34,985 nucleotides of DNA from an uncultured Prevotellaceae bacterium. Lineage in GTDB: Bacteria > Bacteroidota > Bacteroidia > Bacteroidales > Muribaculaceae. Under the pieces are notes generated by a model. It had not been told where the DNA came from. It did not search any database and was given only the letters and a program-made list of their open reading frames with translations. Every line of letters begins with the position of its first letter. Position 1 is the first letter of the stretch. The DNA is taken from positions 1 to 34,985 of the forward strand of contig CAMVPC010000029.1 in the NCBI GenBank assembly GCA_947169265.1, given 5' to 3'. Below are positions 7,988 to 33,333 of the stretch, in pieces. The position numbers and the translations under genes are program-made.

Positions 7988-8779
7988 ATGAGAAAGATTG
8001 ACACCGCCGACGAGCTGCGAAGGGTGCAAATGGACATCCTCGATGCCGTGGCGCGCTACTGCGACAGCCAGGGCATTGTGTATTCGCTCTCGAGCGGCAC
8101 CCTGCTGGGCGCCGTGAGGCACGGCGGCTACATTCCCTGGGACGATGACATCGACCTGTACATGCCTCGCGAGAGCTACGACCGCTTCGTGAGCGGTTTC
8201 CACGACGAAAACGGCACCTACGCTGTGCTCAAGCCCGGCGACGACAAGCGCTACTATTACACCTTTGCCAAGGTCGTCGACACACGCACCACGCTCGTCG
8301 AGGACGAAGTAGCCGGTTTCGAGATAGGCATCTACCTCGACATTTTCCCCATCGACGGCGTGCCCCAAGACGAGGCGGCGCGCGAACGCCTTTTCAAGCG
8401 CAAGAAACTGCTCCACAAGATTCGCCGATGCAAGGTGGCGCGTTCCAATCCGCTCCACTCCACCCTCGCCTATTGGTGCTACCGCTTGCTGCCCGTGAGC
8501 GTCAAAGCCATTGAGCGACGCATCGACCGACTCGTGCGCGCCAACCCCTCCAGCCCACTCATGTGCAACCTCACCGAGGCCGGCCCGTCATGCCCCAGCG
8601 CCGCCTTCCCGGCCGCCTGCTTCGCCTCAACGGTCGACCTCGCCTTTGAGGGAAAAGCTTACAAGGCCATGACAGGTTACCGGCAATACCTTGAGCTCAC
8701 TTATGGTGACTACATGACCCTCCCTCCCGAGGACCAGCGAGTGCGCCACCACTTCACCGCCTACTGGAACGAGCTTTAA
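7988..8779 (+). CDS. LicD-family phosphotransferase
   Basis: This 263-residue protein has the LicD nucleotidyltransferase-fold signature: SGTLLGAVRHGGYIPWDDDI (residues 36-55), then DLYMPRESYDRF. Family members transfer phosphocholine or other phosphoalcohols from a CDP-activated donor to cell-surface glycans. WDDDID (51-56) supplies the metal-binding aspartates. A GTG at 7967 would add seven residues, but ATG 7988 (MRKIDTADELRRVQ) matches the usual family opening. It lies 27 bp after lepA and is probably co-transcribed with it. No glycan cluster surrounds it. The only candidate maker of a CDP donor in this window is the LicC-like fusion gene about 8.4 kb downstream. A terminator follows. Confidence 0.9.
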   Translation: MRKIDTADELRRVQMDILDAVARYCDSQGIVYSLSSGTLLGAVRHGGYIPWDDDIDLYMPRESYDRFVSGFHDENGTYAVLKPGDDKRYYYTFAKVVDTRTTLVEDEVAGFEIGIYLDIFPIDGVPQDEAARERLFKRKKLLHKIRRCKVARSNPLHSTLAYWCYRLLPVSVKAIERRIDRLVRANPSSPLMCNLTEAGPSCPSAAFPAACFASTVDLAFEGKAYKAMTGYRQYLELTYGDYMTLPPEDQRVRHHFTAYWNEL

Positions 8780-15126: not shown

Positions 15127-16044
15127 ATGAAAACTGACAAACGATTGGAAATGCTTGTCGAAAGGGCTCGCGCCGGACGCCGCCTCAAGGTGGCCGTGGC
15201 ATGGCCTGCCGACAAATCGACGCTTAACGCCGTGGCTCAAGCCGTCGACAACGGCATTATCGACGCCATCATGATTGGATGCGCCGACAAGGTAAAGGAA
15301 ACAATGCAAAAAGCTATCGAGGACGGACGCGTGACCCTGCTCGACGTCGAATCGCCCGCCGAGGCCGCCCAAAAGGCTGTAGAGGTCGTGCGCCAAGGCG
15401 ACGCCCAGCTGCTCATGAAGGGCCTGGTGAGCACCGATGTGGTGCTGCGCGCCGTGCTCAACAAGGAAACCGGCCTTCTCGACCCGGGCAATGTGCTTAC
15501 CCACATCAGCATCGGCGACATCCCCACCTATAACAAACTGCTGTGCTTCGGCGACGTGGCCGTGATGCCCAGCCCCAACCTGACGCAACGCGAGGCGCAG
15601 CTGCGCTACATGCTCGACATGTGCCGCTCACTGGGCATCGAGGAGCCGCGCGTGTCGCTCGTACACTGCAGCGAGCACGTGGACGCACGCCACTTCCCGT
15701 GCACTGTCGACTATGTGGAGCTCGTCAAGCGCGCTAAGGAAGGTGAATTCGGGCCCTGCATCGTCGATGGTCCGCTCGACGTGAAAACGTCGTGCTGCCT
15801 CGAGGCCGCCGTCACCAAGGGCATCGACTCGCCCCTGCAAGGCCAGGCCGACGCGCTCATCTTCCCCGAGATTGAGAGCGGCAACTCGTTCTACAAGACG
15901 GTGACCCTCTTTGCCGGCGCCACCATCGCCTGTGTGGTGCTGGGCGCCCGCGTGCCCCTCGTGGTATCGTCGCGCGGCGATGACGAGATGACAAAATATT
16001 ACAGTATCGCGGCCGCTTGCTGCGCGGCAAAGAAAGGAGCGTGA
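15127..16044 (+). CDS. ptb: Phosphate butyryltransferase
   Basis: This 305-residue member of the phosphate acetyl/butyryltransferase family transfers an acyl group from acyl-CoA to phosphate. Visible features are KVAVAWPADKSTLNAV near the start, LLMKGLVSTDVVLRAVLNKETG, and the C-terminal segment LIFPEIESGNSFYKTVTLFAGA. VPLVVSSRGDDEMTKYYSIAAAC closes the protein. The length of about 300 residues and the immediate buk neighbour favour butyryl/branched-chain acyl specificity over phosphotransacetylase. With butyrate kinase it gives ATP from butyryl-, isobutyryl- or isovaleryl-CoA. The ATG follows an AT-rich leader. buk starts 8 bp after the stop, so the two genes form one operon. Confidence 0.92.
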   Translation: MKTDKRLEMLVERARAGRRLKVAVAWPADKSTLNAVAQAVDNGIIDAIMIGCADKVKETMQKAIEDGRVTLLDVESPAEAAQKAVEVVRQGDAQLLMKGLVSTDVVLRAVLNKETGLLDPGNVLTHISIGDIPTYNKLLCFGDVAVMPSPNLTQREAQLRYMLDMCRSLGIEEPRVSLVHCSEHVDARHFPCTVDYVELVKRAKEGEFGPCIVDGPLDVKTSCCLEAAVTKGIDSPLQGQADALIFPEIESGNSFYKTVTLFAGATIACVVLGARVPLVVSSRGDDEMTKYYSIAAACCAAKKGA

Positions 16045-16052
16045 GGAAGACT

Positions 16053-17114
16053 ATGCGAGTATTAGTAATCAACCCCGGCTCCACTTCGACCAAAATCGCC
16101 GTTTTCGACGACGAGAAAGCACTGTTTGTTCACAACATCCACCACGAGCCCGAAGACCTCGCCAAGTTTGACGGTGTGCTCGCGCAACGCCAGTGGCGCA
16201 AGCAAATCGTGCTCAGCGAGCTCGAGAATCGTGGCATTCCCGCCAAGTTCGACGCTGTGGTGGGTCGCGGCGGCCTCACCAAGCCCATCGAGGGCGGCGT
16301 GTATGCCGTGAACGACGCCATGCTCCACGACATGGAGCTGGTGCAGCAGCACCATGCCAGCGACCTGGGTTGCCTCATCGCTCACGAGATTGCCGCGATG
16401 AACCCCGGCACGCCCAGCTTTGTGGCCGACCCTGTCACCGTCGACGAACTTAATGACTATGCCCGCATTAGCGGCACGCCGTTGCTGCCCCGCGTGAGCA
16501 TTTGGCACGCCCTCAACCAGCGCGCCACGGCCCGCCGCTATGCCAAGGAGGCCGGCCGCAGCTACGAGGACCTGAACCTTATCGTGTGCCACCTGGGTGG
16601 CGGCATTTCGGTGGCGGCCCACGACCACGGCCGCGCCGTCGATGTCAACAACGCCCTCAACGGCGAGGGTCCCTTCTCGCCCGAACGCGCAGGCACCCTG
16701 CCCGCCGCCGCGCTGGTGAACCTGTGCTTCAGCGGCAAGTACACCAAGCAAGAGTTGCTCGCCATCATGGCCGGCAAGGGCGGCTTGAGCGCTCACCTGA
16801 ACACCAACAACGCGCTGGAGGTGGAACATGCCATCGAAGCCGGCGACGCACATGCCAAGCTAGTGTTCGACGCCATGATTTACCATGTGGCCAAGAGCAT
16901 CGCCGCCCAGGGCGCCGTGCTCTGCGGCAAGGTCGACGCCATCCTGCTCACCGGCGGCATTGCCCATTCGCGTTACTTGGTGGAAGAAATCAAACGTCGA
17001 GTGGGATACCTCGCGCCCATCCACGTCTATCCCGGCGAGGACGAGATGGAGGCGCTGGCACTCAACGCGCTGGCCGTGCTGCGCGGCGAGCGTGAAGCCA
17101 AAGAATACAAGTAA
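16053..17114 (+). CDS. buk: Butyrate kinase
   Basis: This 353-residue acetokinase-family (ASKHA fold) enzyme converts butyryl phosphate plus ADP to butyrate plus ATP. It opens MRVLVINPGSTSTKIAVFDDE, the phosphate 1 motif. It contains VGRGGLTKPIEGGVYAVN, the adenosine/phosphate 2 region LIVCHLGGGISVAAHDHGRAVDVNNAL, and the C-terminal ILLTGGIAHSRYLVEEIKRR. The frame is open 12 codons further upstream, but ATG 16053 matches the family start and is preceded by purine-rich GGAGC and GAGGAAGA. The length fits butyrate kinase, not acetate kinase (about 400). A strong terminator lies 19 bp after the stop. Confidence 0.95.
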   Translation: MRVLVINPGSTSTKIAVFDDEKALFVHNIHHEPEDLAKFDGVLAQRQWRKQIVLSELENRGIPAKFDAVVGRGGLTKPIEGGVYAVNDAMLHDMELVQQHHASDLGCLIAHEIAAMNPGTPSFVADPVTVDELNDYARISGTPLLPRVSIWHALNQRATARRYAKEAGRSYEDLNLIVCHLGGGISVAAHDHGRAVDVNNALNGEGPFSPERAGTLPAAALVNLCFSGKYTKQELLAIMAGKGGLSAHLNTNNALEVEHAIEAGDAHAKLVFDAMIYHVAKSIAAQGAVLCGKVDAILLTGGIAHSRYLVEEIKRRVGYLAPIHVYPGEDEMEALALNALAVLRGEREAKEYK

Positions 17115-17199: not shown

Positions 17200-19011
17200 A
17201 TGCAAGCTATCATCTTAGCGGCCGGAATGGGACGCCGACTGGGCGAGTACACCCGCGATAACACCAAGTGCATGGTGCCCGTCAATGGCGTGCGCCTCAT
17301 TGACCGTCTGCTGCGGCAGCTGGCCCGTCTTGACCTCAAGCGGGTGGTGATGGTGGTGGGTTACAAGGGGCAAGAGCTTATCGATTACATCGGCGACCGT
17401 TACCGCGACCGCCTCACGATAGAGTTTGCCCATAACCCGGTCTACGACAAGACCAACAACATCTATTCGCTGTCGATTGTCAAGGAACAACTGCAGGCCG
17501 ACGACACGTTGCTCATCGAGAGCGACTTGATTTTCGACGACAGGATGTTCGACATGATTTTGGGGGATCCCTACCCCAACCTGGCGCTGGTGGCGAAATA
17601 CGAGACGTGGATGGACGGCACCATGGTGCGCATCGACGGCGACCACAACATCGTCAATTTTGTGCCCAAGAAAGCGTTCAACTACGACGAAGTCGACACC
17701 TATTATAAAACGGTCAACATCTACAAGTTCAGCCGGCAGTTCAGCCAACAGGTGTACGTGCCCTTCCTCGACGCTTACTGTAAGGTGATGGGCAACAACG
17801 AGTACTACGAGCAGGTGTTGCGCGTCATCACCCTGCTTGACAAGACCGACCTCAAGGCCTTACCCATAGGCAACGAGCGATGGTACGAAATCGACGACGT
17901 GCAGGACCTCGACATCGCCGAGAACATCTTTGCCGGGGAACATGAGCGCTTGGGCAAGTACAGCAAGCGCTACGGCGGTTACTGGCGCTTCCCCAAGATG
18001 CTCGATTTTTGTTATCTCGTGAACCCGTTCTTCCCGCCCAAGCGCATGAAAGATGAGCTGCGGGCCAACTTCGACGTACTGCTCACCGAGTACCCCTCGG
18101 GCATGCGGGTCAACTCGTTGCTCGCCGGCAAGTATTTCGGCATCAGGCAGGAATTTGTCGCTGTGGGGAATGGCGCCGCCGAGCTCATCAAGAGCCTTGT
18201 GGAAGCCCTTGAGGGCAAGTTGGGCGTGGTGTTTCCCACCTTTGAGGAATATCCTAACCGCCTCGACCGCAACCGCCTCGTGCCCTTCACCCCGCAGGGT
18301 GACGACTTGCGCTATGGCATCGATGACCTCAAGCGATTCTTCGCCGACAAGGAACTGGACACGTTGCTGCTCGTCAACCCCGACAACCCTTCGGGCAACT
18401 TCATCCCGAGGAACGACGTCCTGACGCTGGCGGCTTGGTGCCGCGAGCGCGGCGTGAGGCTTGTGGTTGACGAGTCGTTCGTCGACTTCACCGATGACTA
18501 TGCTTCCAATTCGCTGCTCGTCAACGACACCCTGCTTGAGCACCCTAACATGGTGGTAATGAAAAGCATCAGCAAGAGCTACGGCGTGCCCGGCTTGCGG
18601 CTGGGCGTGATGGCCGGCAGCGACACCGCGCTCATCGCCGCCGTCAAGAAGGACGTGGCGATATGGAACATCAACTCGTTCGCCGAGTTTTATATGCAGA
18701 TTTTCAACAAATACGAGCACATCTACAAGGTGGCCTGCGCCAAGTTCCTCGATGAGCGACGACGCTTCGAGGCACAGCTGGCGCGCGTGCCCTTCTTGCG
18801 CGTCATTCCTTCGCAGGCCAACTACTTCCTGTGTGAGGTCACGGGCCGCTTCACCGCCGCTTCGCTCACCGAGACACTGCTCAACCGTCACAACATTCTC
18901 ATCAAGGACTGCTCCACCAAGACAGGGCTTGAAAGAAAGAATTACGTGCGCATCGCAATCCGCAACCGCGACGACAACGACGCGCTCATCAATGTGCTGA
19001 AACAACTATGA
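17200..19011 (+). CDS. Fusion: LicC-like cytidylyltransferase + CobD-like PLP decarboxylase/aminotransferase
   Basis: This 603-residue protein has two enzymes in one chain. Residues 1 to about 245 are a sugar-nucleotide/LicC-type nucleotidyltransferase: MQAIILAAGMGRRLGEYTRD, KCMVPVNG, KTNNIYSLSIVKEQL, IESDLIFDD, and WYEIDDVQDLDIAE, which closely parallels LicC of pneumococcus. Residues about 255-603 are a fold-type I PLP enzyme most like CobD (threonine-phosphate decarboxylase). Motifs are YGGYWRFPKMLDFCYLVNPF, LLVNPDNPSGN, VVDESFVDF, SISKSYGVPGLRLGVM (predicted PLP lysine K459), RVIPSQANYFLCEV and LERKNYVRIAIRNRDDND. I infer that it decarboxylates an amino-acid O-phosphate (for example phosphoserine) and makes the CDP derivative of the product. 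HisC-type transamination is the main alternative. The stop overlaps the next start (ATGA). Confidence 0.85.
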   Translation: MQAIILAAGMGRRLGEYTRDNTKCMVPVNGVRLIDRLLRQLARLDLKRVVMVVGYKGQELIDYIGDRYRDRLTIEFAHNPVYDKTNNIYSLSIVKEQLQADDTLLIESDLIFDDRMFDMILGDPYPNLALVAKYETWMDGTMVRIDGDHNIVNFVPKKAFNYDEVDTYYKTVNIYKFSRQFSQQVYVPFLDAYCKVMGNNEYYEQVLRVITLLDKTDLKALPIGNERWYEIDDVQDLDIAENIFAGEHERLGKYSKRYGGYWRFPKMLDFCYLVNPFFPPKRMKDELRANFDVLLTEYPSGMRVNSLLAGKYFGIRQEFVAVGNGAAELIKSLVEALEGKLGVVFPTFEEYPNRLDRNRLVPFTPQGDDLRYGIDDLKRFFADKELDTLLLVNPDNPSGNFIPRNDVLTLAAWCRERGVRLVVDESFVDFTDDYASNSLLVNDTLLEHPNMVVMKSISKSYGVPGLRLGVMAGSDTALIAAVKKDVAIWNINSFAEFYMQIFNKYEHIYKVACAKFLDERRRFEAQLARVPFLRVIPSQANYFLCEVTGRFTAASLTETLLNRHNILIKDCSTKTGLERKNYVRIAIRNRDDNDALINVLKQL

Positions 19012-20027
19012 CACGAATCTGCATCTGTGGCGGGGGCTCGCTGGGACACACTGTGGCCGGCTATGTGGGCGCGAAACCCGATTTTGAGGTGAGTCTGCTC
19101 ACGCGTCATCCCGAGTTGTGGGGCTCCACAATCGACGTTATCGACCCGTCGGGCAAGCACTTCGCCGGGCGGTTGCGTCGTGTCACCGGCGATGCCGCCG
19201 AAGTGATTCCCGGCAGCGACATCGTGCTGCTGTGCTTACCGGGCTTCGCCATCGAGTCCACACTGCGCGCCATTAGCCCCTACCTCAAGCCCACGACCAT
19301 GGTGGGCACAGTCGTATCGAGCACCGGTTTCTTTTTCATGGCGCGCGACACGCTCGACCACTCGATTCCCCTTTTCGGCTTCCAGCGTGTTCCTTTCATC
19401 GCGCGCACTGTGGAATATGGCCGCAAAGCCTGTCTCAAAGGATACAAGACGGGGCTTAATGTGGCTTTTGAGCACGCTACCGAAGCGCAAAAACGGCACT
19501 GCCGCGCTGTGCTCGAGAAGATGCTGGACCTTCCCGTCACATTGCTGGGAAGCCATTACGAAGTGAGCCTAACCAACAGCAATCCGTTGCTGCACACATC
19601 GCGCATCTACACTCTGTGGCGCGACTGGCGCCCGGGCATCAACTTCGACTGCTGCCCCGAGTTTTACAGCGACTGGACGCTCGAGGCCTCGCAATATTAT
19701 ATCGCGATGGACAACGAGTTCCAAACCTTGCTCAAGCGACTGCCGGTGACTCCCGGAGCCATTCCCCGCGTGCTTGATTACTACGAAAGTACCGACGCCG
19801 CCTCGCTCACACGCAAGTTGGCCTCAATACCCGCTTTCAAAGGCATACCGGCTCCCATGACACGCGACGCACAAGGGCGATACGCCCCCGACCTTCACAG
19901 CCGCTACTTCACCGAAGACTTCCCCTTCGGCCTGCACTTCATCGTGAAAGTGGCGCGAGAAACAAATTTCCCCGCTCCCATCATGGCCCAAGTCTACAAC
20001 TGGGGAATGCATTTGATACAGCCTTGA
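19008..20027 (+). CDS. Opine-dehydrogenase-like NAD(P)-binding oxidoreductase
   Basis: This 339-residue protein has an N-terminal Rossmann fold with MTRICICGGGSLGHTVAGYV (GxGxxG at residues 8-13). An extended segment follows (GSDIVLLCLPGFAIESTL). The C-terminal helical domain is of the octopine/nopaline dehydrogenase type, with TNSNPLLHTSRIYTLWRDW, whose His196 is at the expected catalytic position, and DNEFQTLLKRL. Opine dehydrogenases reductively join an amine to a 2-oxo acid. It is coupled to the fusion gene by a four-base overlap, so both should work on the same molecule. A ketopantoate-reductase-like enzyme is the main alternative, but the NP-x2-H motif favours the opine type. Substrates are unknown. 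Confidence 0.8.
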   Translation: MTRICICGGGSLGHTVAGYVGAKPDFEVSLLTRHPELWGSTIDVIDPSGKHFAGRLRRVTGDAAEVIPGSDIVLLCLPGFAIESTLRAISPYLKPTTMVGTVVSSTGFFFMARDTLDHSIPLFGFQRVPFIARTVEYGRKACLKGYKTGLNVAFEHATEAQKRHCRAVLEKMLDLPVTLLGSHYEVSLTNSNPLLHTSRIYTLWRDWRPGINFDCCPEFYSDWTLEASQYYIAMDNEFQTLLKRLPVTPGAIPRVLDYYESTDAASLTRKLASIPAFKGIPAPMTRDAQGRYAPDLHSRYFTEDFPFGLHFIVKVARETNFPAPIMAQVYNWGMHLIQP

Positions 20028-22143: not shown

Positions 22144-23748
22144 ATGGACCGAAACAAACAAGAACAAGACGTGAGAGTGAAAGACCACATTCGCGGCTGC
22201 CTCATGGCCGGAGCCGCCGGCGACGCGTTGGGTTATCCCGTGGAATTCATGAGCCGTGAGGCCATCCTGGCCCACTATGGCCCCGAAGGCATCACGCGCC
22301 TCGAAACACGCGACGGCAAAGCCCTCGTTAGCGATGACACACAAATGACCCTCTTCACCGCCAACGGCATCCTCATGGGCATCACGCGGGGCGCGATGCG
22401 CGGTGTGGGCGGCAATCCCGAGGGCTATGTGCAATATGCCTATCTCGACTGGTACTACACCCAAACGGGTCGCAAACACCGTTGGTTCGAGCACGGCTTC
22501 ACATGGCTGCGCAACCTACCCGAACTGGCTCACCGCCGCGCCCCCGGCAACACGTGCCTGAGCGCTTGCGACAGCCTGCTCAACCACCGCGACGTGGAGA
22601 ACGACAGCAAGGGCTGCGGCGGCATCATGCGCGTGGCACCCATGGGCCTGCTCACCGCGAGCTACGACATAAAGGACACATCTATCAGCAACGCCGCCAC
22701 GGCTTGGGCCGGTGCCGAGATTGCGCGCTGCACCCACAAGCATCCGCTCGGTTTCTTGCCGGCGGCCCTGCTCACTCATGTGGTACACAGGTTGGCGTTA
22801 CTGTCCACCGAAGATGGCATAGCCCAATTCACCAACCTCGTCACCGGAGCCACCGAACTACTGAAAGACATCTATCAAGGCGAGTTTGACCGTGACAAGC
22901 AATACCTCACCGCGCTCACCGCGCGAGCCCTCGAGCTGGCCTCCTCACGACTCAACGACCACGAGGCCATCGCGCGACTGGGCCAGGGCTGGACGGGCGA
23001 AGAGGCGTGGGCCATCGCCGTCTACTGCGTGGCCCGCCATCTCCACGAGCCGGAACAGGCCGTAATCGCCGCCGTGAACCATGACGGCGACAGCGACAGC
23101 ACCGGCGCTATCGCCGGCAACATCGTGGGTGTCCTCTACGGTCTGGAAGCCCTCGAAAGGCGCCACTTCTTGTGCCCGGCAGGCCGCAACCTGACCGACA
23201 CCTTGGAACTCGCCGACATCATATTGGCGCTGGCCGATGACATCTCGACAGGGTGCATCGTGAGCGAATACGCTCCCAACGACACGCCCGAGCAACAGCA
23301 GTGGTTGGCACGTTACGTCTATATGAAGCCCGCCGGCATCCACAAAGAACCCGCGTATCGCCGACCTTTTGTGCCCGGCAAAATCACCTCGCTCAAGCCC
23401 AACGAGATTTTCGTCTTCGGCAGCAACCTCGCCGGCAGCCACGGTGGCGGCGCGGCCTTAGCCGCGTGGAAACGCTTTGGCGCCATCATGGGCCAGGGCG
23501 TGGGTCTGCAGGGCCAAAGCTACGCTATCCCCACGATGCAAGGCGGTGTAGAGACCATCAAGCCTTACACCGATGAGTTCATCGCCTTTGCCGCCTCCCA
23601 CCCCGAGCTCACGTTCCTGGTGACACGCATTGGCTGCGGCATCGCCGGTTTCAGCGACAGCGACATCGCGCCACTGTTCCGCGAAGCCCTTCCCCTGAGC
23701 AACGTACTACTGCCGCGCTCGTTCGTCGAAGTCCTCAACGCCCTTTAA
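22144..23748 (+). CDS. ADP-ribosylglycohydrolase fused to A1S_2505-like domain
   Basis: This 534-residue protein has two parts. Residues about 10-355 are an ARH/DraG-type ADP-ribosylglycohydrolase: GCLMAGAAGDALGYPVEFMS, metal site SDDTQM (63-68), GCGGIMRVAPMGL, and the second metal/ribose motif NHDGDSDSTGAIAGNI (about 312-327). Residues about 405-534 match a domain seen alone in phages and bacteria as A1S_2505-type: NEIFVFGSNLAGSHGGGAAL, AIMGQGVGLQGQSYAIPT, and HPELTFLVTRIGCGIAGFSD. That domain's glycine-rich pattern resembles macro domains, which bind ADP-ribose, but this relation is my inference. The predicted role is removal or processing of ADP-ribose groups in the cytosol. It is co-transcribed with the NUDIX regulator 20 bp upstream. 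Confidence 0.87.
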   Translation: MDRNKQEQDVRVKDHIRGCLMAGAAGDALGYPVEFMSREAILAHYGPEGITRLETRDGKALVSDDTQMTLFTANGILMGITRGAMRGVGGNPEGYVQYAYLDWYYTQTGRKHRWFEHGFTWLRNLPELAHRRAPGNTCLSACDSLLNHRDVENDSKGCGGIMRVAPMGLLTASYDIKDTSISNAATAWAGAEIARCTHKHPLGFLPAALLTHVVHRLALLSTEDGIAQFTNLVTGATELLKDIYQGEFDRDKQYLTALTARALELASSRLNDHEAIARLGQGWTGEEAWAIAVYCVARHLHEPEQAVIAAVNHDGDSDSTGAIAGNIVGVLYGLEALERRHFLCPAGRNLTDTLELADIILALADDISTGCIVSEYAPNDTPEQQQWLARYVYMKPAGIHKEPAYRRPFVPGKITSLKPNEIFVFGSNLAGSHGGGAALAAWKRFGAIMGQGVGLQGQSYAIPTMQGGVETIKPYTDEFIAFAASHPELTFLVTRIGCGIAGFSDSDIAPLFREALPLSNVLLPRSFVEVLNAL

Positions 23749-25431: not shown

Positions 25432-26919
25432 TTACTCGTCGGCCAACAACAGGTTATACAGTGCGGTGACATCGCCGCCATTCACCACGCCGTCGCCGTT
25501 CACATCGCCGACGGCGTCGCTTTGTCCCTCGGTGTCGAAGAGGATAGAATAGAGAGCCGTCACGTCGCCGCCGTTGACCACGCCATCGATGTTGACGTCG
25601 CCCCACGGCGTTTCCATGAGTCGGTTCATCTCCTCGATTTCGCGTGTGTACCACTCGGCGACGATGGCCACCTCATCGGCCACATCGGGCAAGAGCGACA
25701 CGGGGTTGTTGTTCCACTTACCCACCTCGCGCTGCCAAGCTCCCGACGCAGTCATCTGCGCGGCGTAGGCGTCCATCTTATCGACAAGATTCTTGTGGCT
25801 GAACGTGGTGTTGCGCAGCTGCGCCCAGCGATGACGGAAGGCTTGCTGGAAGTCGAGCGTCTCGTCGTAGAGATACAGTTTCCTGTAGAGCGACACCGCC
25901 GACAAGAAACGCCACTCGGTGAGTTTGTTGAGCCAATAACCGTCGTAGCGGTTGCCCATCGAGGCGTCAAGGTCCCACGGGGTGACCACATAGTGCTTGT
26001 CCTTGGTAATGTCAACCGCACTCAAGTAACTGTTTTTCATCGAGTTGTCGCTAATTCGGAAAGCCATCACAAACACCATGTAATCGATAAGGTTATCGCG
26101 GTAGAAAACATCCTCGTACACCTGGGTAAGGCGTTCCACCGGCAACCGGCACGTGTCAATCACGTCCATGAGCGGTTGCCACGTGGCCAGCGAGGGATAG
26201 TCTTCGGGCACCTTCAGTTCCCAGCCATTCCAGGCAATGGTATCGACAGGCGCGGCATCGTAACTCTCAAAATAACTGGCCTGGCTGTGCTTCTCGCACT
26301 TGTATTGCAGGCCGCGCACCGTCACGTTGCCCTCATCGTCGACTTTGGCTTTCTTCAGGCCCAGCAACTTGCGGTCAATCTTGTCGGTGAGGCAATAGAG
26401 GCCTTGATAAGCGCCGTTGAAATACAATTCCACGAAGTGTCCCAGCGTGCCGTTACGGCGGTCGTAGTCGGTCTCCCACGGCGTGCGGTTAGTCTCGTTC
26501 CACAGGTCGAAAAGGACGCGGTTGCGCATTCTCAGGCGGTCGCAGGCCATGGCGTCGAGTATCCAACTGTCCTCGTTGCGTATGCCCAGCATGTTCACGT
26601 CAAGGCCGTTCCCCTCGCTATCGACAGTCTTTACCGCCAGCGACTTCTTCGCGTAGTAGAGCGACGACTCGCCACGCCAGCGCATGCGGCAATCAAACGA
26701 GCACATCACCTCGCCCGTGGTACGCGCCAGCGGGTCGGCCACATCGATGTGTCCGTCTATATAGTTCTCCTTGGACATTTGGGCCACGTTGATGGTGAGA
26801 TTGATCTGCGGCAGCGACTCCTCGGTGAGATTGGCGCACGCGCGCTCAAAATCGGTCTCGGCATGAATCGCCACCCATGCCGTCAACGCGGCAATGATTG
26901 AAAGACAAATATGTTTCAT
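25432..26919 (-). CDS. Secreted CotH-kinase-family protein with dockerin repeats
   Basis: This 495-residue protein has a signal peptide (MKHICLSIIAALTAWVAIHA). The CotH kinase domain (about 50-400) contains RWRGESSLYYAKKSLAVK, GTLGHFVELYFNGAYQGLYC, YRDNLIDYMVFVMAFRISDN with SMKNSYLS, and VTPWDLDASMGN. CotH of spore formers phosphorylates coat proteins; DN-x2-KN and WDLD fit its Mg/ATP-binding acidic residues. The C-terminus (439-495) holds two dockerin-type calcium repeats, GDVNIDGVVNGGDVTALYSI and GDVNGDGVVNGGDVTALYNL. Dockerins bind cohesins, but none is in the window. It lies 21 bp after its paralogue in one operon. It lacks the sorting tail of that paralogue. Confidence 0.88.
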   Translation of the reverse strand: MKHICLSIIAALTAWVAIHAETDFERACANLTEESLPQINLTINVAQMSKENYIDGHIDVADPLARTTGEVMCSFDCRMRWRGESSLYYAKKSLAVKTVDSEGNGLDVNMLGIRNEDSWILDAMACDRLRMRNRVLFDLWNETNRTPWETDYDRRNGTLGHFVELYFNGAYQGLYCLTDKIDRKLLGLKKAKVDDEGNVTVRGLQYKCEKHSQASYFESYDAAPVDTIAWNGWELKVPEDYPSLATWQPLMDVIDTCRLPVERLTQVYEDVFYRDNLIDYMVFVMAFRISDNSMKNSYLSAVDITKDKHYVVTPWDLDASMGNRYDGYWLNKLTEWRFLSAVSLYRKLYLYDETLDFQQAFRHRWAQLRNTTFSHKNLVDKMDAYAAQMTASGAWQREVGKWNNNPVSLLPDVADEVAIVAEWYTREIEEMNRLMETPWGDVNIDGVVNGGDVTALYSILFDTEGQSDAVGDVNGDGVVNGGDVTALYNLLLADE

Positions 26920-28803: not shown

Positions 28804-31800
28804 TTAGAAGCGTACCTTGGTCGAAGTACCATCGGTGAAGCGGATGATATACACACCCTTCTCAGGATTCTTCACCTGCTGGCCATTGACATTGTAGATA
28901 CCCTGGACTTCCTTGCCATTGAGCATCTTAATAGCCTGCAATCCTGTGGCAATCGAAGCCGCTTTGGCATCAATCTGGATGTTCTCAAATGCCAGGTCAT
29001 CGTCGATAGCCACGCGTGCGGGAGCATCGCTGGGCGCATCCCAAGCCTCCTTCAACGACACGACGCCGGTAATCTTTTGCTGCTTGCCATTCTCAATCGA
29101 GCCAATCATGTTGTCGGTGGTCATACCGATGTGCAAGCCATGACCCGAGCTGAATGCGCAAAGTTCACTGGTTTCGGCGTTGTAGTAACCCACAAAGTCG
29201 GCCACTTCGTTCGACTTGAGTTCGGTGAGAGCCGTGCGGTGGATTTCGCCCAGATTGAGCGTCTTGGTAACCACATTGACGATGGCCTCACTCACCTCAT
29301 AAGTTACGTAAGTAATTACGGGATTCAAGTCAAGGCCGCTGATGACACCCACCATGTTGCCAATAACTTCACCCTCGGCAGCGTCGATGCCCGGCGCAAC
29401 CTTGAGCCAGTTGCCAAGGCCGTCGGAAACGATGGCATAGTTGCTGTTGCTCACCATCACCTTCATGTCACTGGTGATGAGCACCAAGCCTTCTTCGCCT
29501 TCAAGAGCCTCAGCGAGCGTACATCCATCAGGAACCACTTCGAAGGTCGCGCTTACGGTAACCGAATTCATGGGCATCTCGAAGGTGTAAATGCCTTCGC
29601 CCGTCTTATTAAAGCTCACGGTAGTATCGACGACAGCCTCTACCACATTCAGGCTCGTGAGCACATATCCTTCTTCGGGTGTCACAGTGAGGGTGACGAT
29701 TTGGTCATCGGTATTGAAAGCCAAATAAGACTTGTCGGCCGTCACAATGCCGTTCGCTACCGAATCGATGACGACGGCGCGTGCTGCAACGATGGTCTTA
29801 TTGTTGATGTTATCAACAGTGGCGAGCGTGGAAGTGCCTTCGAGGACGAAAACACTGTTGATGCCCAACTTTTCGACGGTATATTGACCTTGTGCTTTGA
29901 TGCGGTCGGTAGGATTGCTCCATCTCAATTCAATAGTATCAGAGGGTTCAGAAGGATATGCGTAGTGTGCAGCTCCGATTGCTACGTTGTAGTTCTCGCC
30001 GGAGATTGCCGTGACATCACCACCAGTGATGCGAATAGTGCCACTTCTTCCTCCACGAGCATTAACGGAGTTCTCGTCAGCTCCACCGCCGATTCCTGGC
30101 GAATTGAAACCACCCTTCGCAACGACGGTTCCGCCGCTGATATTTACTTCCATCGCAGGCCATCCACCTGATCCGCCAATTCCAGCGCCACCATAATTGC
30201 CCTGCTGTCCCGTGGCATTGACAGTACCGCCAGTAATGAAGATACGTCCACCCGTTCCATTACATCCGGCGCCAATACCCGCCGACGAAGCTCCACCAGT
30301 AGCATCGACCATACCACCATGGATGTAAATTTGACTTCTTCGACTTCCACCGCCTGTATCGTAACCAGAGCCTATACCGGCTGCAGTGGCACCCTTCGTA
30401 GTGATGTGACCGCCATTGATGGTGATGATACCGTGGTTACCATTTCTTTCACCACCGATACCGGCGCTTGCGCTTTGCGCGTAATCCACCAGTAATTGTC
30501 CCATCTGTTCGCCCTCGCTCTGTGCATAGATAGTGAGTGAATTGGGTGTGTCGGCATCCTGCACTGTGATACCTTTTCTGGGGTTGTAAGTCGCACCGTC
30601 CATAAGAATCAGATGTACGTCGCCGGTGACGGTGACGCGCTTATCGTCGAATTTCACGTTGCCCTTTGCCACATACCAGCCATCGGTGAGCTCGGTCACG
30701 TCCCGCATTAACAGCTGATAGTTTTCGCAGACGTCAGGAACCATTTGGTTGGTCACACTGTCATAACTAAGGAATGGGACGGAACCCAGGATTTCAAATG
30801 GAAGGTCGTGAGTGCCGCCGTAGTTGCCAATACCGTTTATGGTCACAGTATATTCTCCCGGCTCGATACAGCCTTCGCTGTAGGTGAGTTCATAGTCAAC
30901 GCCTTCAACGAGGGTGTAAGCAGTACTGTAATCAATTTTGTGGGTGACTGTAGGCTTGGGGTGTACCTCCTCGCCGGTGTGACCCCATTGTGGGTTGATA
31001 GTGAAAGTATAGCCGTCGGCGCTAAGGTCACGGGGCAAAATGTTGAAATGTCCAACCAAAGTGCCCGTGTAAGGACCGCTACCCGTGAGAATTACTGTAG
31101 CTTCGCCGGCATTGATATTGTTTTCGTAAGCGACCTGATAGTTGACAGCGTAGGAAAGAGTGTTTCCGTCAACTGTCACCACAAGCGATGCAGTCTGTGC
31201 TTTTCCGGTGTAGGTCTTGTCAGGTATGGAGTCGATTACACCTGTGGAGATGTCAATCAGGCTGTCGATATGTTCGCCGGTGACAACCACGGGACCGGTG
31301 AAATCTCTCAATCTTTGTTCTCCTGTCATCGTGTAGGGAGCGCTCAGTGTGCCAGTATTGACGTTGTACTTGAAGAACAACTTATCCTCTGGCAGGTCGT
31401 AGTTGAACGTAAACGTTGCGGGCGATGCATAGTAGTCAACGTTCTTGTAAGTTTTGGAGGGAGTGCCGTCGCTGATGGTCACGCGCTCGCCGGCGGTGAC
31501 GGTAGCCACCAGTTTCATGTTCGAACTGTTGGTGTTATACCCCATCGACTTGGCGTAGTAACAATTTGTCGGCTTTGGGACGGCGCAGTAGGTGTAGCCC
31601 TTCCATGACATATCGACATCAATATCACCTGGAACGAAGAAGCAGTCGACAAAGAAGCAATTATTGTTGGAATAGGATTGTTTCCCGATGAAACCACTCC
31701 ACTCATTTGTGTTAGGACCATACATGTTGCCATCAAACACGCAGTTGGTGAAAGTAATGCCATGGGCGTCGCCCACTTTGCCCAAGAAACCGCCATGGTC

Positions 31801-33333
31801 GCCGTGGCCATTATAGGTACCGTTCATCGTGGCACTCACAACGCAGTTGGTGATGTTGTTGTCTGAGCCTGCCGTCGTGCCAATGAGACCGCCGGTGTAC
31901 TGTGCCGAGGTGTTGATGGTACCGGCAACAGTGAGGTCGGTGATCGTGGCACCATTTATCGAGCAGAACAAGCTCTTTGCATTCTCGGTGATGTTCAAGT
32001 CCAGCGTGATGGTGTGTCCCTGTCCATCGAAAGTACCATCGAATGTTGTTTCCATCATGTAGGTCACCGGATCAGTGATGTCGGCTGTGAGCTTGGCGGT
32101 GGCATTGCTCGGAGCAATGCCCTCGCTAATCATGATGGTGAATATCCGCCAATCGAAGGCGCTGCCGATGAGATATGCGCCACTCTCGTCGGTGGGAAGA
32201 GCCTTCTCCACCATGTGGGCATAGAGGGTCAGGTTATCGGTGATGGGTGTGCTGAAGTCGAAGGGCTCGGTGGCACCATCCTCAAACCATCCGAGGAACA
32301 GCCATCCATCCACATTTGGCGCTTCGGGTTCCACCACTAAATGGTTCTCTGAGATAATTTGACGGTCATATTCATTGCCGTTCAACATAAACGACACCCT
32401 GTATTTGTTGATGAACAACGGTGCGAGAGTGATGCCATTGAGATTATCACTGGCAGTCACCTCCTCTCCGGTATCGGCATTCTTAAATGGGGCGTTCATA
32501 GTGACATCCGCCTTGACCTGCGACATATAGATGCGGTCGTCCATTGAGCTCCAGTTGAGAATCAACGTGGCATTGGATTTGCAGTGCGAATACGCATAAC
32601 CTGGCCCCACAGCGGACCCCCAACTTGTAGCAGCGAGATGCACCACGCCACCATTGATGGTGAGCGTTCCGCCATTACTGCCTTTGTAAAACTTGTTACT
32701 TGTCATATTATAATACCCACCGCCACCGATAGCACTACCGCCGCCGTAATATGGGCTACCTGGATTGTTGGTGGTCACGGTCACGGTTCCGCCATTGATT
32801 GTTACGTCACCGCCATCGCCACAGCTCATTCCACTGCCGCCGCCACCGATGCCGGCAGCATATTCGCCAGGAGCGATGTTAAGCACGCCGCCGTTAATCA
32901 CGAGTTTGCCGCACGATTGTTGTGCGCTACCTCCGATGCCCGCATGGAATTCGTAGGCATTTTCCGACGTTGCCGTCAAAGCACCCGTACCGCCGCTCTG
33001 GCAGTAGATGTCCAGCTCGTTGCCTAACTCGAGGGTGATACCCTTGTGCACTGTCAGCGTAGCGCCGTCGGTCAAGATAAGGTGTACGGTACCGTAAACC
33101 GTAACACACGTGTCGGCAAAGGTCACATCGCTGCTTACCACATACCAGCCGTTGCTCCAATCGATGACCTGATTGGTCACCGTGGTGTAGCTGCCAGCCG
33201 CAAGAGTCTGCGGCTCACCGAACCGGTCAAGATAAGTCACATTTTGCGCTTGCACCGCCACAGGCACAAACACTGCCGCCATCATCGCCAATAGCAATGA
33301 CGGCAACCATGATTTGAGTCTTGATTTTACCAT
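28804..33333 (-). CDS. Giant multidomain secreted protein with T9SS-like sorting tail
   Basis: This 1509-residue protein has a signal peptide (about 1-29, ending VQAQ). In order it shows a Gly-rich beta-helix-like module with AGIGG/INGG repeats (about 30-260) and a Listeria-Bacteroides repeat (about 310-375, WLFLGWFEDGATEPFDFSTP). Next is a GLUG-like segment (about 395-560, TFDGTFDGQGHTITLDLNI and repeats of GGLIG/GGFLG), then MBG/Ig-like domains (about 690-880, DKTYTGKAQTASLVVTVDG). A second copy of the first module follows (about 880-1170), then a beta repeat and an OB-like region. The tail GIYNVNGQQVKNPEKGVYII looks like a type A T9SS signal. It is probably a surface or released adhesin-like protein. 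Ligands are unknown. Confidence 0.85.
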   Translation of the reverse strand: MVKSRLKSWLPSLLLAMMAAVFVPVAVQAQNVTYLDRFGEPQTLAAGSYTTVTNQVIDWSNGWYVVSSDVTFADTCVTVYGTVHLILTDGATLTVHKGITLELGNELDIYCQSGGTGALTATSENAYEFHAGIGGSAQQSCGKLVINGGVLNIAPGEYAAGIGGGGSGMSCGDGGDVTINGGTVTVTTNNPGSPYYGGGSAIGGGGYYNMTSNKFYKGSNGGTLTINGGVVHLAATSWGSAVGPGYAYSHCKSNATLILNWSSMDDRIYMSQVKADVTMNAPFKNADTGEEVTASDNLNGITLAPLFINKYRVSFMLNGNEYDRQIISENHLVVEPEAPNVDGWLFLGWFEDGATEPFDFSTPITDNLTLYAHMVEKALPTDESGAYLIGSAFDWRIFTIMISEGIAPSNATAKLTADITDPVTYMMETTFDGTFDGQGHTITLDLNITENAKSLFCSINGATITDLTVAGTINTSAQYTGGLIGTTAGSDNNITNCVVSATMNGTYNGHGDHGGFLGKVGDAHGITFTNCVFDGNMYGPNTNEWSGFIGKQSYSNNNCFFVDCFFVPGDIDVDMSWKGYTYCAVPKPTNCYYAKSMGYNTNSSNMKLVATVTAGERVTISDGTPSKTYKNVDYYASPATFTFNYDLPEDKLFFKYNVNTGTLSAPYTMTGEQRLRDFTGPVVVTGEHIDSLIDISTGVIDSIPDKTYTGKAQTASLVVTVDGNTLSYAVNYQVAYENNINAGEATVILTGSGPYTGTLVGHFNILPRDLSADGYTFTINPQWGHTGEEVHPKPTVTHKIDYSTAYTLVEGVDYELTYSEGCIEPGEYTVTINGIGNYGGTHDLPFEILGSVPFLSYDSVTNQMVPDVCENYQLLMRDVTELTDGWYVAKGNVKFDDKRVTVTGDVHLILMDGATYNPRKGITVQDADTPNSLTIYAQSEGEQMGQLLVDYAQSASAGIGGERNGNHGIITINGGHITTKGATAAGIGSGYDTGGGSRRSQIYIHGGMVDATGGASSAGIGAGCNGTGGRIFITGGTVNATGQQGNYGGAGIGGSGGWPAMEVNISGGTVVAKGGFNSPGIGGGADENSVNARGGRSGTIRITGGDVTAISGENYNVAIGAAHYAYPSEPSDTIELRWSNPTDRIKAQGQYTVEKLGINSVFVLEGTSTLATVDNINNKTIVAARAVVIDSVANGIVTADKSYLAFNTDDQIVTLTVTPEEGYVLTSLNVVEAVVDTTVSFNKTGEGIYTFEMPMNSVTVSATFEVVPDGCTLAEALEGEEGLVLITSDMKVMVSNSNYAIVSDGLGNWLKVAPGIDAAEGEVIGNMVGVISGLDLNPVITYVTYEVSEAIVNVVTKTLNLGEIHRTALTELKSNEVADFVGYYNAETSELCAFSSGHGLHIGMTTDNMIGSIENGKQQKITGVVSLKEAWDAPSDAPARVAIDDDLAFENIQIDAKAASIATGLQAIKMLNGKEVQGIYNVNGQQVKNPEKGVYIIRFTDGTSTKVRF

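What the first reader, a model, noticed from the sequence alone, without database searches (positions are those of the whole stretch)
17200..20027. Possible new pathway: LicC-CobD fusion plus opine dehydrogenase making a CDP-activated N-carboxyalkyl aminoalcohol phosphate
One chain joins a LicC-like cytidylyltransferase to a PLP domain whose motifs follow CobD closely (K459 in SISKSYGVPGLRLG, the RVIPSQANYFL segment, the C-terminal VRIAIRNR segment). The next gene overlaps by four bases and is opine-dehydrogenase-like. CobD decarboxylates threonine phosphate, and a CobD relative in Sulfurospirillum is known to act on serine phosphate. A coherent scheme would be: serine phosphate to phosphoethanolamine, reductive joining to pyruvate or another 2-oxo acid, then activation with CTP. 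A LicD-type enzyme (one lies at 7988-8779) could put the product on a glycan. N-(1-carboxyethyl)ethanolamine phosphate is a known O-antigen substituent in Proteus, so the chemistry exists. The enzymes proposed here for it are my inference.
Basis: partly seen in the sequence, partly recalled or inferred. Interest (0 to 1): 0.78.

Follow-up and report, generated by a model that had tools for sequence, protein, structure and literature searches.

The report
Enzyme set for amino-alcohol glycan tags
A gut-type bacterium carries a joined set of enzymes that most likely turns an amino acid phosphate into an activated carboxylated amino-alcohol tag for its surface sugars, with one enzyme slot that relatives keep swapping between two unrelated reductases.

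Summary
In detail: 17200-19011 encodes one chain, a LicC-like cytidylyltransferase joined to a CobD/SMUL_1544-type PLP domain, and an octopine-dehydrogenase-type gene overlaps it by four bases. The pair is a conserved unit. Of 86 distinct, mostly near, loci, 59 have this dehydrogenase beside (50) or fused to (9) the chain, 23 have an unrelated OCD/mu-crystallin reductase there, 4 neither. In two pairs of clusters, 88-94% identical in DNA on both sides, only this gene is exchanged. Elsewhere the dehydrogenase is fused to LicD. Loci end in LicD, a CDP-glycerol-transferase-like protein or a CDP-alcohol phosphatidyltransferase. The window's LicD is 54-60% identical to many partner LicDs. Gene content speaks against phosphonate and B12 readings. 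Best scheme: serine phosphate to ethanolamine phosphate, reductive joining to a 2-oxo acid, CTP activation, transfer to a glycan. Substrates and the order of the middle steps are inferred; nothing was assayed. In an evenly drawn set, 7 of 13 loci have a reductase, so that step is optional.

The parts
17200..19011 (+). 603-aa fusion: cytidylyltransferase + PLP enzyme
   Evidence: ORF; Pfam; AlphaFold model mean pLDDT 93.8
17200..17943 (+). N-terminal LicC-like cytidylyltransferase domain (LAAGxGxRLxxxTxxxxKC; K23, D109, E230, D232)
   Evidence: PF12804; LicC 1jyk and PntC 6pd1 matches; K23 and D109 in 122 of 122, E230 and D232 in 121 of 122 related domain copies, near-copies included
17956..19008 (+). 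C-terminal PLP domain, SMUL_1544/CobD superfamily, PLP lysine K459
19008..20027 (+). opine (octopine-type) dehydrogenase, H196/R299/D304 aligned with octopine DH H212/R324/D329
7988..8779 (+). LicD-family transferase, probable terminal enzyme for the same donor
   Evidence: PF04991; 54-60% identical to LicD genes next to the fusion/reductase pair in a set of relatives

Best explanation
The fusion and its neighbour make a CDP-activated, N-carboxyalkylated amino-alcohol phosphate for surface tailoring. Likely course: (1) the PLP domain decarboxylates O-phospho-L-serine to ethanolamine phosphate (or the CMP-bound form, as FrbH may do with its phosphonate); (2) the opine dehydrogenase reduces the imine formed by this primary amine and a 2-oxo acid, most likely pyruvate, giving N-(1-carboxyethyl)ethanolamine phosphate; (3) the cytidylyltransferase domain joins it to CMP, before or after step 2; (4) LicD (7988-8779) moves the phosphoalkyl group onto a glycan. 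That PLP chemistry precedes reduction follows from its need for a primary amine. The linkage of the enzymes is shown; all substrates are inferred.
For: CTase-PLP-ODH single chains of 943-953 aa at 9 distinct loci and ODH-LicD single chains at 6 fetched loci, two of them near-copies (Pfam-checked for L070). An imine-type reductase lies beside or in the chain at 82 of 86 distinct loci. In 38 genomes (37 of the genus plus G054), OCD PF02423 over its cut-off occurs in 9 of 19 fusion genomes, each time beside the fusion, and in 0 of 19 without. ODH or OCD at the locus occurs in 18 of 19 fusion genomes; 1 of the 19 others has any Octopine_DH (Fisher p 2e-8). L102/L115 and L094/L097 are clean OCD/ODH exchanges. 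Nearest transferase within 4 kb: LicD 59, TagB/TagF-like 16, none 11 of 86. The PLP domain groups with SMUL_1544 apart from CobD and HisC, support 99/96, and shares its C-Y-L motif where CobD has S-A-N. Cj1436 makes ethanolamine phosphate from serine phosphate (passage of PMC11800397). FrbH joins CTP activation and decarboxylation (passage of PMC8007912). LicD-type Mf1 uses CDP-ethanolamine (abstract and passages of PMC11982090). R-Cet-EtnP exists on Proteus O-antigen (passage of PMC9630907).
Confidence: 0.6

Rival explanations
1. The PLP domain is a transaminase, like Cj1437, making serinol phosphate from dihydroxyacetone phosphate; the rest of the scheme (CTP activation, N-carboxyalkylation, transfer) is as above, giving an N-carboxyalkyl serinol phosphate.
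Against: Sequence and tree put the domain with the decarboxylase SMUL_1544, away from HisC; TIGR01140 (CobD) scores 195.8 against 136.8 for HisC TIGR01141.
Confidence: 0.12
2. The chain makes plain CDP-ethanolamine (or CDP-aminopropanol) and the dehydrogenase serves another step, such as a free opine or a sugar.
For: 9 of 9 unfused relatives fetched carry a third gene of one cluster, a CDP-alcohol phosphatidyltransferase in the 2 tested, with no ODH or OCD match in the fetched stretch. L098, L111 and L112 go straight from fusion to LicD.
Against: ODH is fused to the chain itself in some loci and to LicD in others. OCD, whose known reactions overlap with ODH mainly in imine reduction (recalled), takes exactly its slot.
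Confidence: 0.15
3. A PntC-AEPT-like phosphonate pathway (CMP-aminoethylphosphonate).
For: Treponema PntC-AEPT 6pd1 has the same gross layout and matches the N-domain (E 5.6e-9; passages of PMC6697681).
Against: PEP mutase TIGR02320 occurs in 3 of 38 genomes, none of the 19 with the fusion (as an association not significant, p 0.23). The PLP part matches Aminotran_1_2, not a class V model.
Confidence: 0.03
4. The PLP domain is the CobD of cobamide synthesis.
Against: Below the equivalog cut-off (195.8 of 290.55). 13 of 19 fusion genomes, the window's included, lack CbiB PF03186. In the five CbiB neighbourhoods fetched, a separate CobD of another clade lies beside CbiB.
Confidence: 0.02

Closest known systems
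FrbH (FR-900098 biosynthesis, Streptomyces)
   Same: CTP-dependent activation and PLP decarboxylation of a phosphorus-bearing amino acid in one enzyme (passages of PMC8007912 and PMC6697681).
   Different: Phosphonate antibiotic pathway with amino-phosphonobutyrate; here no PEP mutase was found, and partners are opine-type reductases and LicD.
Treponema denticola PntC-AEPT (6pd1/6pd2)
   Same: LicC-like cytidylyltransferase fused to a PLP enzyme; surface tailoring.
   Different: Class V transaminase and PEP mutase dependence; neither is met here.
Lic-1 pathway (LicC/LicD)
   Same: LicC-like activation and LicD-type transfer of a CDP-alcohol.
   Different: The alcohol phosphate would be made from an amino acid phosphate by a fused PLP domain and then N-alkylated, not from imported choline.
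SMUL_1544 and Cj1436
   Same: SMUL_1544: same PLP clade. Cj1436: serine phosphate to ethanolamine phosphate for a capsule (sequence not compared).
   Different: Stand-alone enzymes for norcobamide or for an amide-linked ethanolamine; no CTP step known to me.
Octopine / CENDH opine dehydrogenases
   Same: Fold and catalytic His/Asp/Arg positions.
   Different: The amine would be a (CDP-)amino-alcohol phosphate, not an amino acid.
Proteus O-antigen R-Cet-EtnP
   Same: The proposed substituent itself, N-[(R)-1-carboxyethyl]ethanolamine phosphate.
   Different: Its enzymes are not named in the passages I read; I did not search Proteus genomes.

Membership tests
CobD threonine-phosphate decarboxylase (TIGR01140) | score above the equivalog cut-off | tested here: not met
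   195.8 bits, cut-off 290.55
CobD threonine-phosphate decarboxylase (TIGR01140) | cobamide gene context (CbiB in genome) | tested here: not met
   13 of 19 fusion genomes incl. G000 lack PF03186; 6 have it
SMUL_1544-type serine-phosphate decarboxylase | groups with SMUL_1544 apart from CobD and HisC | tested here: met
   branch support 99/96, 50 rows, midpoint root; long branches flagged
SMUL_1544-type serine-phosphate decarboxylase | active-site residues of the family | tested here: inconclusive
   K459, N396, R467, R584 and the C-Y-L motif kept; K569 in place of Arg
SMUL_1544-type serine-phosphate decarboxylase | serine phosphate decarboxylation | not testable with these tools
   needs assay
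LicC-like cytidylyltransferase (PF12804) | NTP_transf_3 domain and signature lysine | tested here: met
   42.9 bits, cut-off 27; K23 in 122 of 122 domain copies
LicC-like cytidylyltransferase (PF12804) | CTP and amino-alcohol phosphate as substrates | not testable with these tools
   needs assay
Opine dehydrogenase (PF02317) | Octopine_DH domain, catalytic His and Asp | tested here: met
   101.9 bits; H196 and D304 invariant in 37 of 37 aligned, aligned with H212 and D329 of octopine DH (roles recalled)
Opine dehydrogenase (PF02317) | reductive condensation of amine and 2-oxo acid | not testable with these tools
   needs assay
PntC-AEPT phosphonate tailoring | PEP mutase in the genome | tested here: not met
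   0 of 19 fusion genomes
PntC-AEPT phosphonate tailoring | class V aminotransferase domain | tested here: not met
   Aminotran_1_2 only
Lic-1 pathway | LicD-family transferase | tested here: met
   7988-8779, 142.5 bits
Lic-1 pathway | choline kinase LicA and choline uptake | not tested
   not searched
FrbH | homology of both domains to FrbH | not tested
   no FrbH sequence was at hand

The most novel reading that the evidence does not exclude
The reductase slot is a chemical switch for surface diversity: octopine-type dehydrogenase and mu-crystallin-type reductase load the same CDP-amino-alcohol with carboxyalkyl groups of opposite handedness or from different 2-oxo acids, and exchange of that single gene changes the surface epitope in otherwise unchanged clusters.
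Probability: 0.35. Interest if true: 0.85.

Novelty: new variant of a known kind. Interest (0 to 1): 0.74.

Why it matters
It would give enzymes for a class of surface substituent, N-carboxyalkyl amino-alcohol phosphates, whose synthesis was not described in the papers and passages I saw. It would also add a serine-phosphate route to CDP-amines in Bacteroidales, an abundant gut and rumen order, and point to a swappable gene that may diversify surface epitopes. Each step can be tested with a few purified proteins; the 943-953 aa natural chain would test three steps in one tube.

Tried and rejected
Phosphonate reading: rejected on PEP mutase absence and PLP class; the co-absence alone is not significant (p 0.23). 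B12 reading: rejected. Protein O-glycan as acceptor: in L025 the flippase scores 654.2 against NF058658 O-glycosylation flippase, below its cut-off of 720, and passages on Bacteroidota O-glycans showed no matching substituent; left open. The first neighbour tally gave 8 loci without a reductase; the six-frame recount gave 4, since my ORF caller had missed genes (for example in G022). The profiles for the recount were built from loci of this genus and G054, so very divergent reductases could be missed. Five locus pairs were compared; two are clean single-gene exchanges, the other three also differ elsewhere (see full report). Literature: ten searches of the CC-licensed PMC set listed no paper that by title or abstract start describes this gene set; only passages of ten papers were opened, subscription papers are not held, and the SMUL_1544 paper was not held. 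The pdb_via look tested only the PLP part of the fusion.

Full report

IT IS ONE FUNCTIONAL UNIT. With the window and 17 relatives this makes 98 loci; 12 near-copies were dropped, leaving 86. Six-frame profile searches gave: Octopine_DH within 1.5 kb at 50 and in the same chain at 9; an OCD/mu-crystallin protein at 19 on the same strand and 4 on the other; neither at 4 (L087, which ends at its contig end, and L098, L111, L112). OCD is assigned to PF02423 for L021 (84.8 bits, cut-off 24) and for 9 genomes. These 80 are the nearest relatives, so the share is biased upward. In 393 evenly drawn genomes of the order, 13 have both domains together with most of their length (12 full chains, one interrupted, G692; the fragment in G796 was left out). 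A reductase match lies beside them in 7 of the 13, the window's own among them, and not in G530, G579, G621, G712, G719 and G793. In 395 evenly drawn genomes of the phylum only one further full-length relative (G203, 32% identity) passed E 1e-40.

FUSIONS. The frame runs on through the dehydrogenase to 946-953 aa in three loci; counting all, 12 fetched loci, 9 after near-copies are dropped, carry a chain of 943-953 aa. At six loci (L070, L074, L076, L077, L079, L104; L076 and L077 near-copies) the dehydrogenase is instead one chain with LicD; L070 was checked with Pfam (Octopine_DH 117 bits, LicD 136.6 bits). All four activities are thus linked by natural chains.

A SWAPPED SLOT. On a tree of 97 fusion proteins (FastTree) the OCD label needs at least 18 gains or losses, 15 forced by well-supported branches. 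I compared five locus pairs. L102 and L115 are 93.5% identical in DNA over 3.9 kb up to the end of the fusion gene and 90.5% over 9 kb from the next gene on, but one has OCD and the other ODH between. L094 and L097 show the same with 88.3% (2 kb, from the edge of the L094 stretch) and 94.5% (9 kb). L046/L050 (81%) exchange a fused ODH for an OCD on the other strand; window/L021 (81% up to the end of the fusion) and L103/L117 (79%) also differ beyond the slot. In 38 genomes (37 of the genus and G054), OCD over its cut-off occurs in 9, each beside the fusion, and in none of the 19 without it. Either reductase is at the locus in 18 of 19 fusion genomes; in the last (G013) the fusion runs off the contig and a partial, sub-threshold OCD match lies on another. 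Octopine_DH also occurs away from the fusion in G000, G020, G024 and G009, and 4-5 kb from it in G010, which has OCD beside the fusion; of the 19 genomes without the fusion only G009 has one (Fisher p 2e-8). The chemistry that two unrelated families share here is most simply reduction of an imine between an amine and a 2-oxo acid (family knowledge, recalled). Frequent exchange also fits a switch between two related products; that is inference.

THE CDP STEP. Three unrelated kinds of CDP-alcohol-using transferase accompany the chain. Within 4 kb the nearest is LicD at 59, a TagB/TagF-like protein at 16 and none at 11 of 86 loci, the window among the 11. The TagB/TagF-like protein scores 28.5 bits for Glyphos_transf in L115 (cut-off 22.1) but 19.4, below cut-off, in L032. 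In L167 a CDP-alcohol phosphatidyltransferase follows fusion and ODH (41.1 bits). Distant unfused cytidylyltransferase and PLP pairs (32-34% identity in the PLP part, L153-L161) have a third gene of one cluster in 9 of 9; the 2 members tested are CDP-alcohol phosphatidyltransferases. A 32%-identical fusion in a genome that shares only the phylum (G203, L120) is followed by LicD (50.1 bits). The window's LicD is 75.6% identical to that of the partly syntenic relative L021 and 54-60% identical to LicD genes near the pair in L023, L024, L039, L042, L043, L052, L066, L080, L084, L086, L088, L103, L106 and some others; the rest of the 30 rows printed are 32-51% identical. LicD-type Mf1 transfers phosphoethanolamine from CDP-ethanolamine (abstract and passages of PMC11982090).

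THE AMINE STEP. In a tree of 50 PLP domains, the 26 fusion, 9 unfused and 5 of 6 stand-alone relatives group with SMUL_1544, apart from Salmonella CobD, five CobD genes beside CbiB in this genus, one stand-alone relative (L166), 3ftb and HisC (support 99/96, midpoint root; long branches are flagged, L120 among them, so placements inside are unsure). Where CobD has S30-A31-N32, SMUL_1544 has C-Y-L, and each of these letters is kept in 23 or 24 of 26 fusions; K459, N396, R467 and R584 are kept in 25 or 26 of 26; at the position of CobD R323 the fusions have Lys in 19, Ser in 4, Arg in 2 and Glu in 1 of 26. SMUL_1544 as serine phosphate decarboxylase is recalled; its paper was not held. Cj1436 doing this reaction, and Cj1437 making serinol phosphate, I read in passages of PMC11800397. 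Stand-alone relatives sit with a glutamine-synthetase-like gene, a C26 peptidase and an HAD hydrolase (L162) or an HAD hydrolase (L121), a setting that fits amino-alcohol phosphate chemistry (inference).

THE REDUCTION STEP. H196, R299 and D304 of the window protein align with H212, R324 and D329 of octopine dehydrogenase (roles recalled) and are invariant in the 37 aligned sequences. Octopine-type enzymes make the (R) centre (recalled), which matches N-[(R)-1-carboxyethyl]ethanolamine phosphate on Proteus O-antigen (passage of PMC9630907).

AGAINST OTHER READINGS. PEP mutase occurs in 3 of 38 genomes, none with the fusion. CbiB is missing in 13 of 19 fusion genomes. FrbH is the nearest architectural precedent (passages), so the order CTP first, decarboxylation second, is possible here too.

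WHAT IS SHOWN AND WHAT IS NOT. Shown: domain make-up, conservation, fusions, exchanges, company with CDP-alcohol transferases. Inferred: every substrate, the order of steps 2 and 3, the acceptor. In the window's own genome, the role of LicD rests on its similarity to partner LicDs, not on adjacency.

Noticed in passing
G000:C16 (L123:4916-12105): A second Octopine_DH of the same genome (134.3 bits) lies in a polysaccharide cluster with a UDP-hexose dehydrogenase, glycosyltransferase, sugar transferase, ATP-grasp protein and a 615-aa protein without Pfam match; an amide-linked opine amino acid on a uronic acid would fit (inference).
   Followed up: partly
L162:8233-12373, also L163 and L122: Stand-alone PLP relatives sit with a glutamine-synthetase-like gene, a C26 peptidase and an HAD hydrolase, perhaps a gamma-glutamyl-ethanolamine type pathway (only L162 members Pfam-checked; others by cluster).
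   Followed up: partly
L153-L161: Unfused cytidylyltransferase and PLP genes followed by a gene of one cluster, a CDP-alcohol phosphatidyltransferase in the 2 of 9 checked: a possible route to a phosphatidyl-amine lipid from an amino acid phosphate.
   Followed up: partly
window 22144-23748: ADP-ribosylglycohydrolase joined to an A1S_2505-type phage non-structural domain (145.6 bits, cut-off 45).
   Followed up: no
window 15127-17114: Phosphate butyryltransferase-like and butyrate kinase genes directly upstream of the fusion, ending 85 bases before it; same gene order in L021.
   Followed up: no
window 25432-26919: CotH kinase protein with a C-terminal dockerin type I domain.
   Followed up: no
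window 28804-33333: 1509-aa protein with Listeria-Bacteroides repeat and beta-helix segments, a likely surface protein.
   Followed up: no
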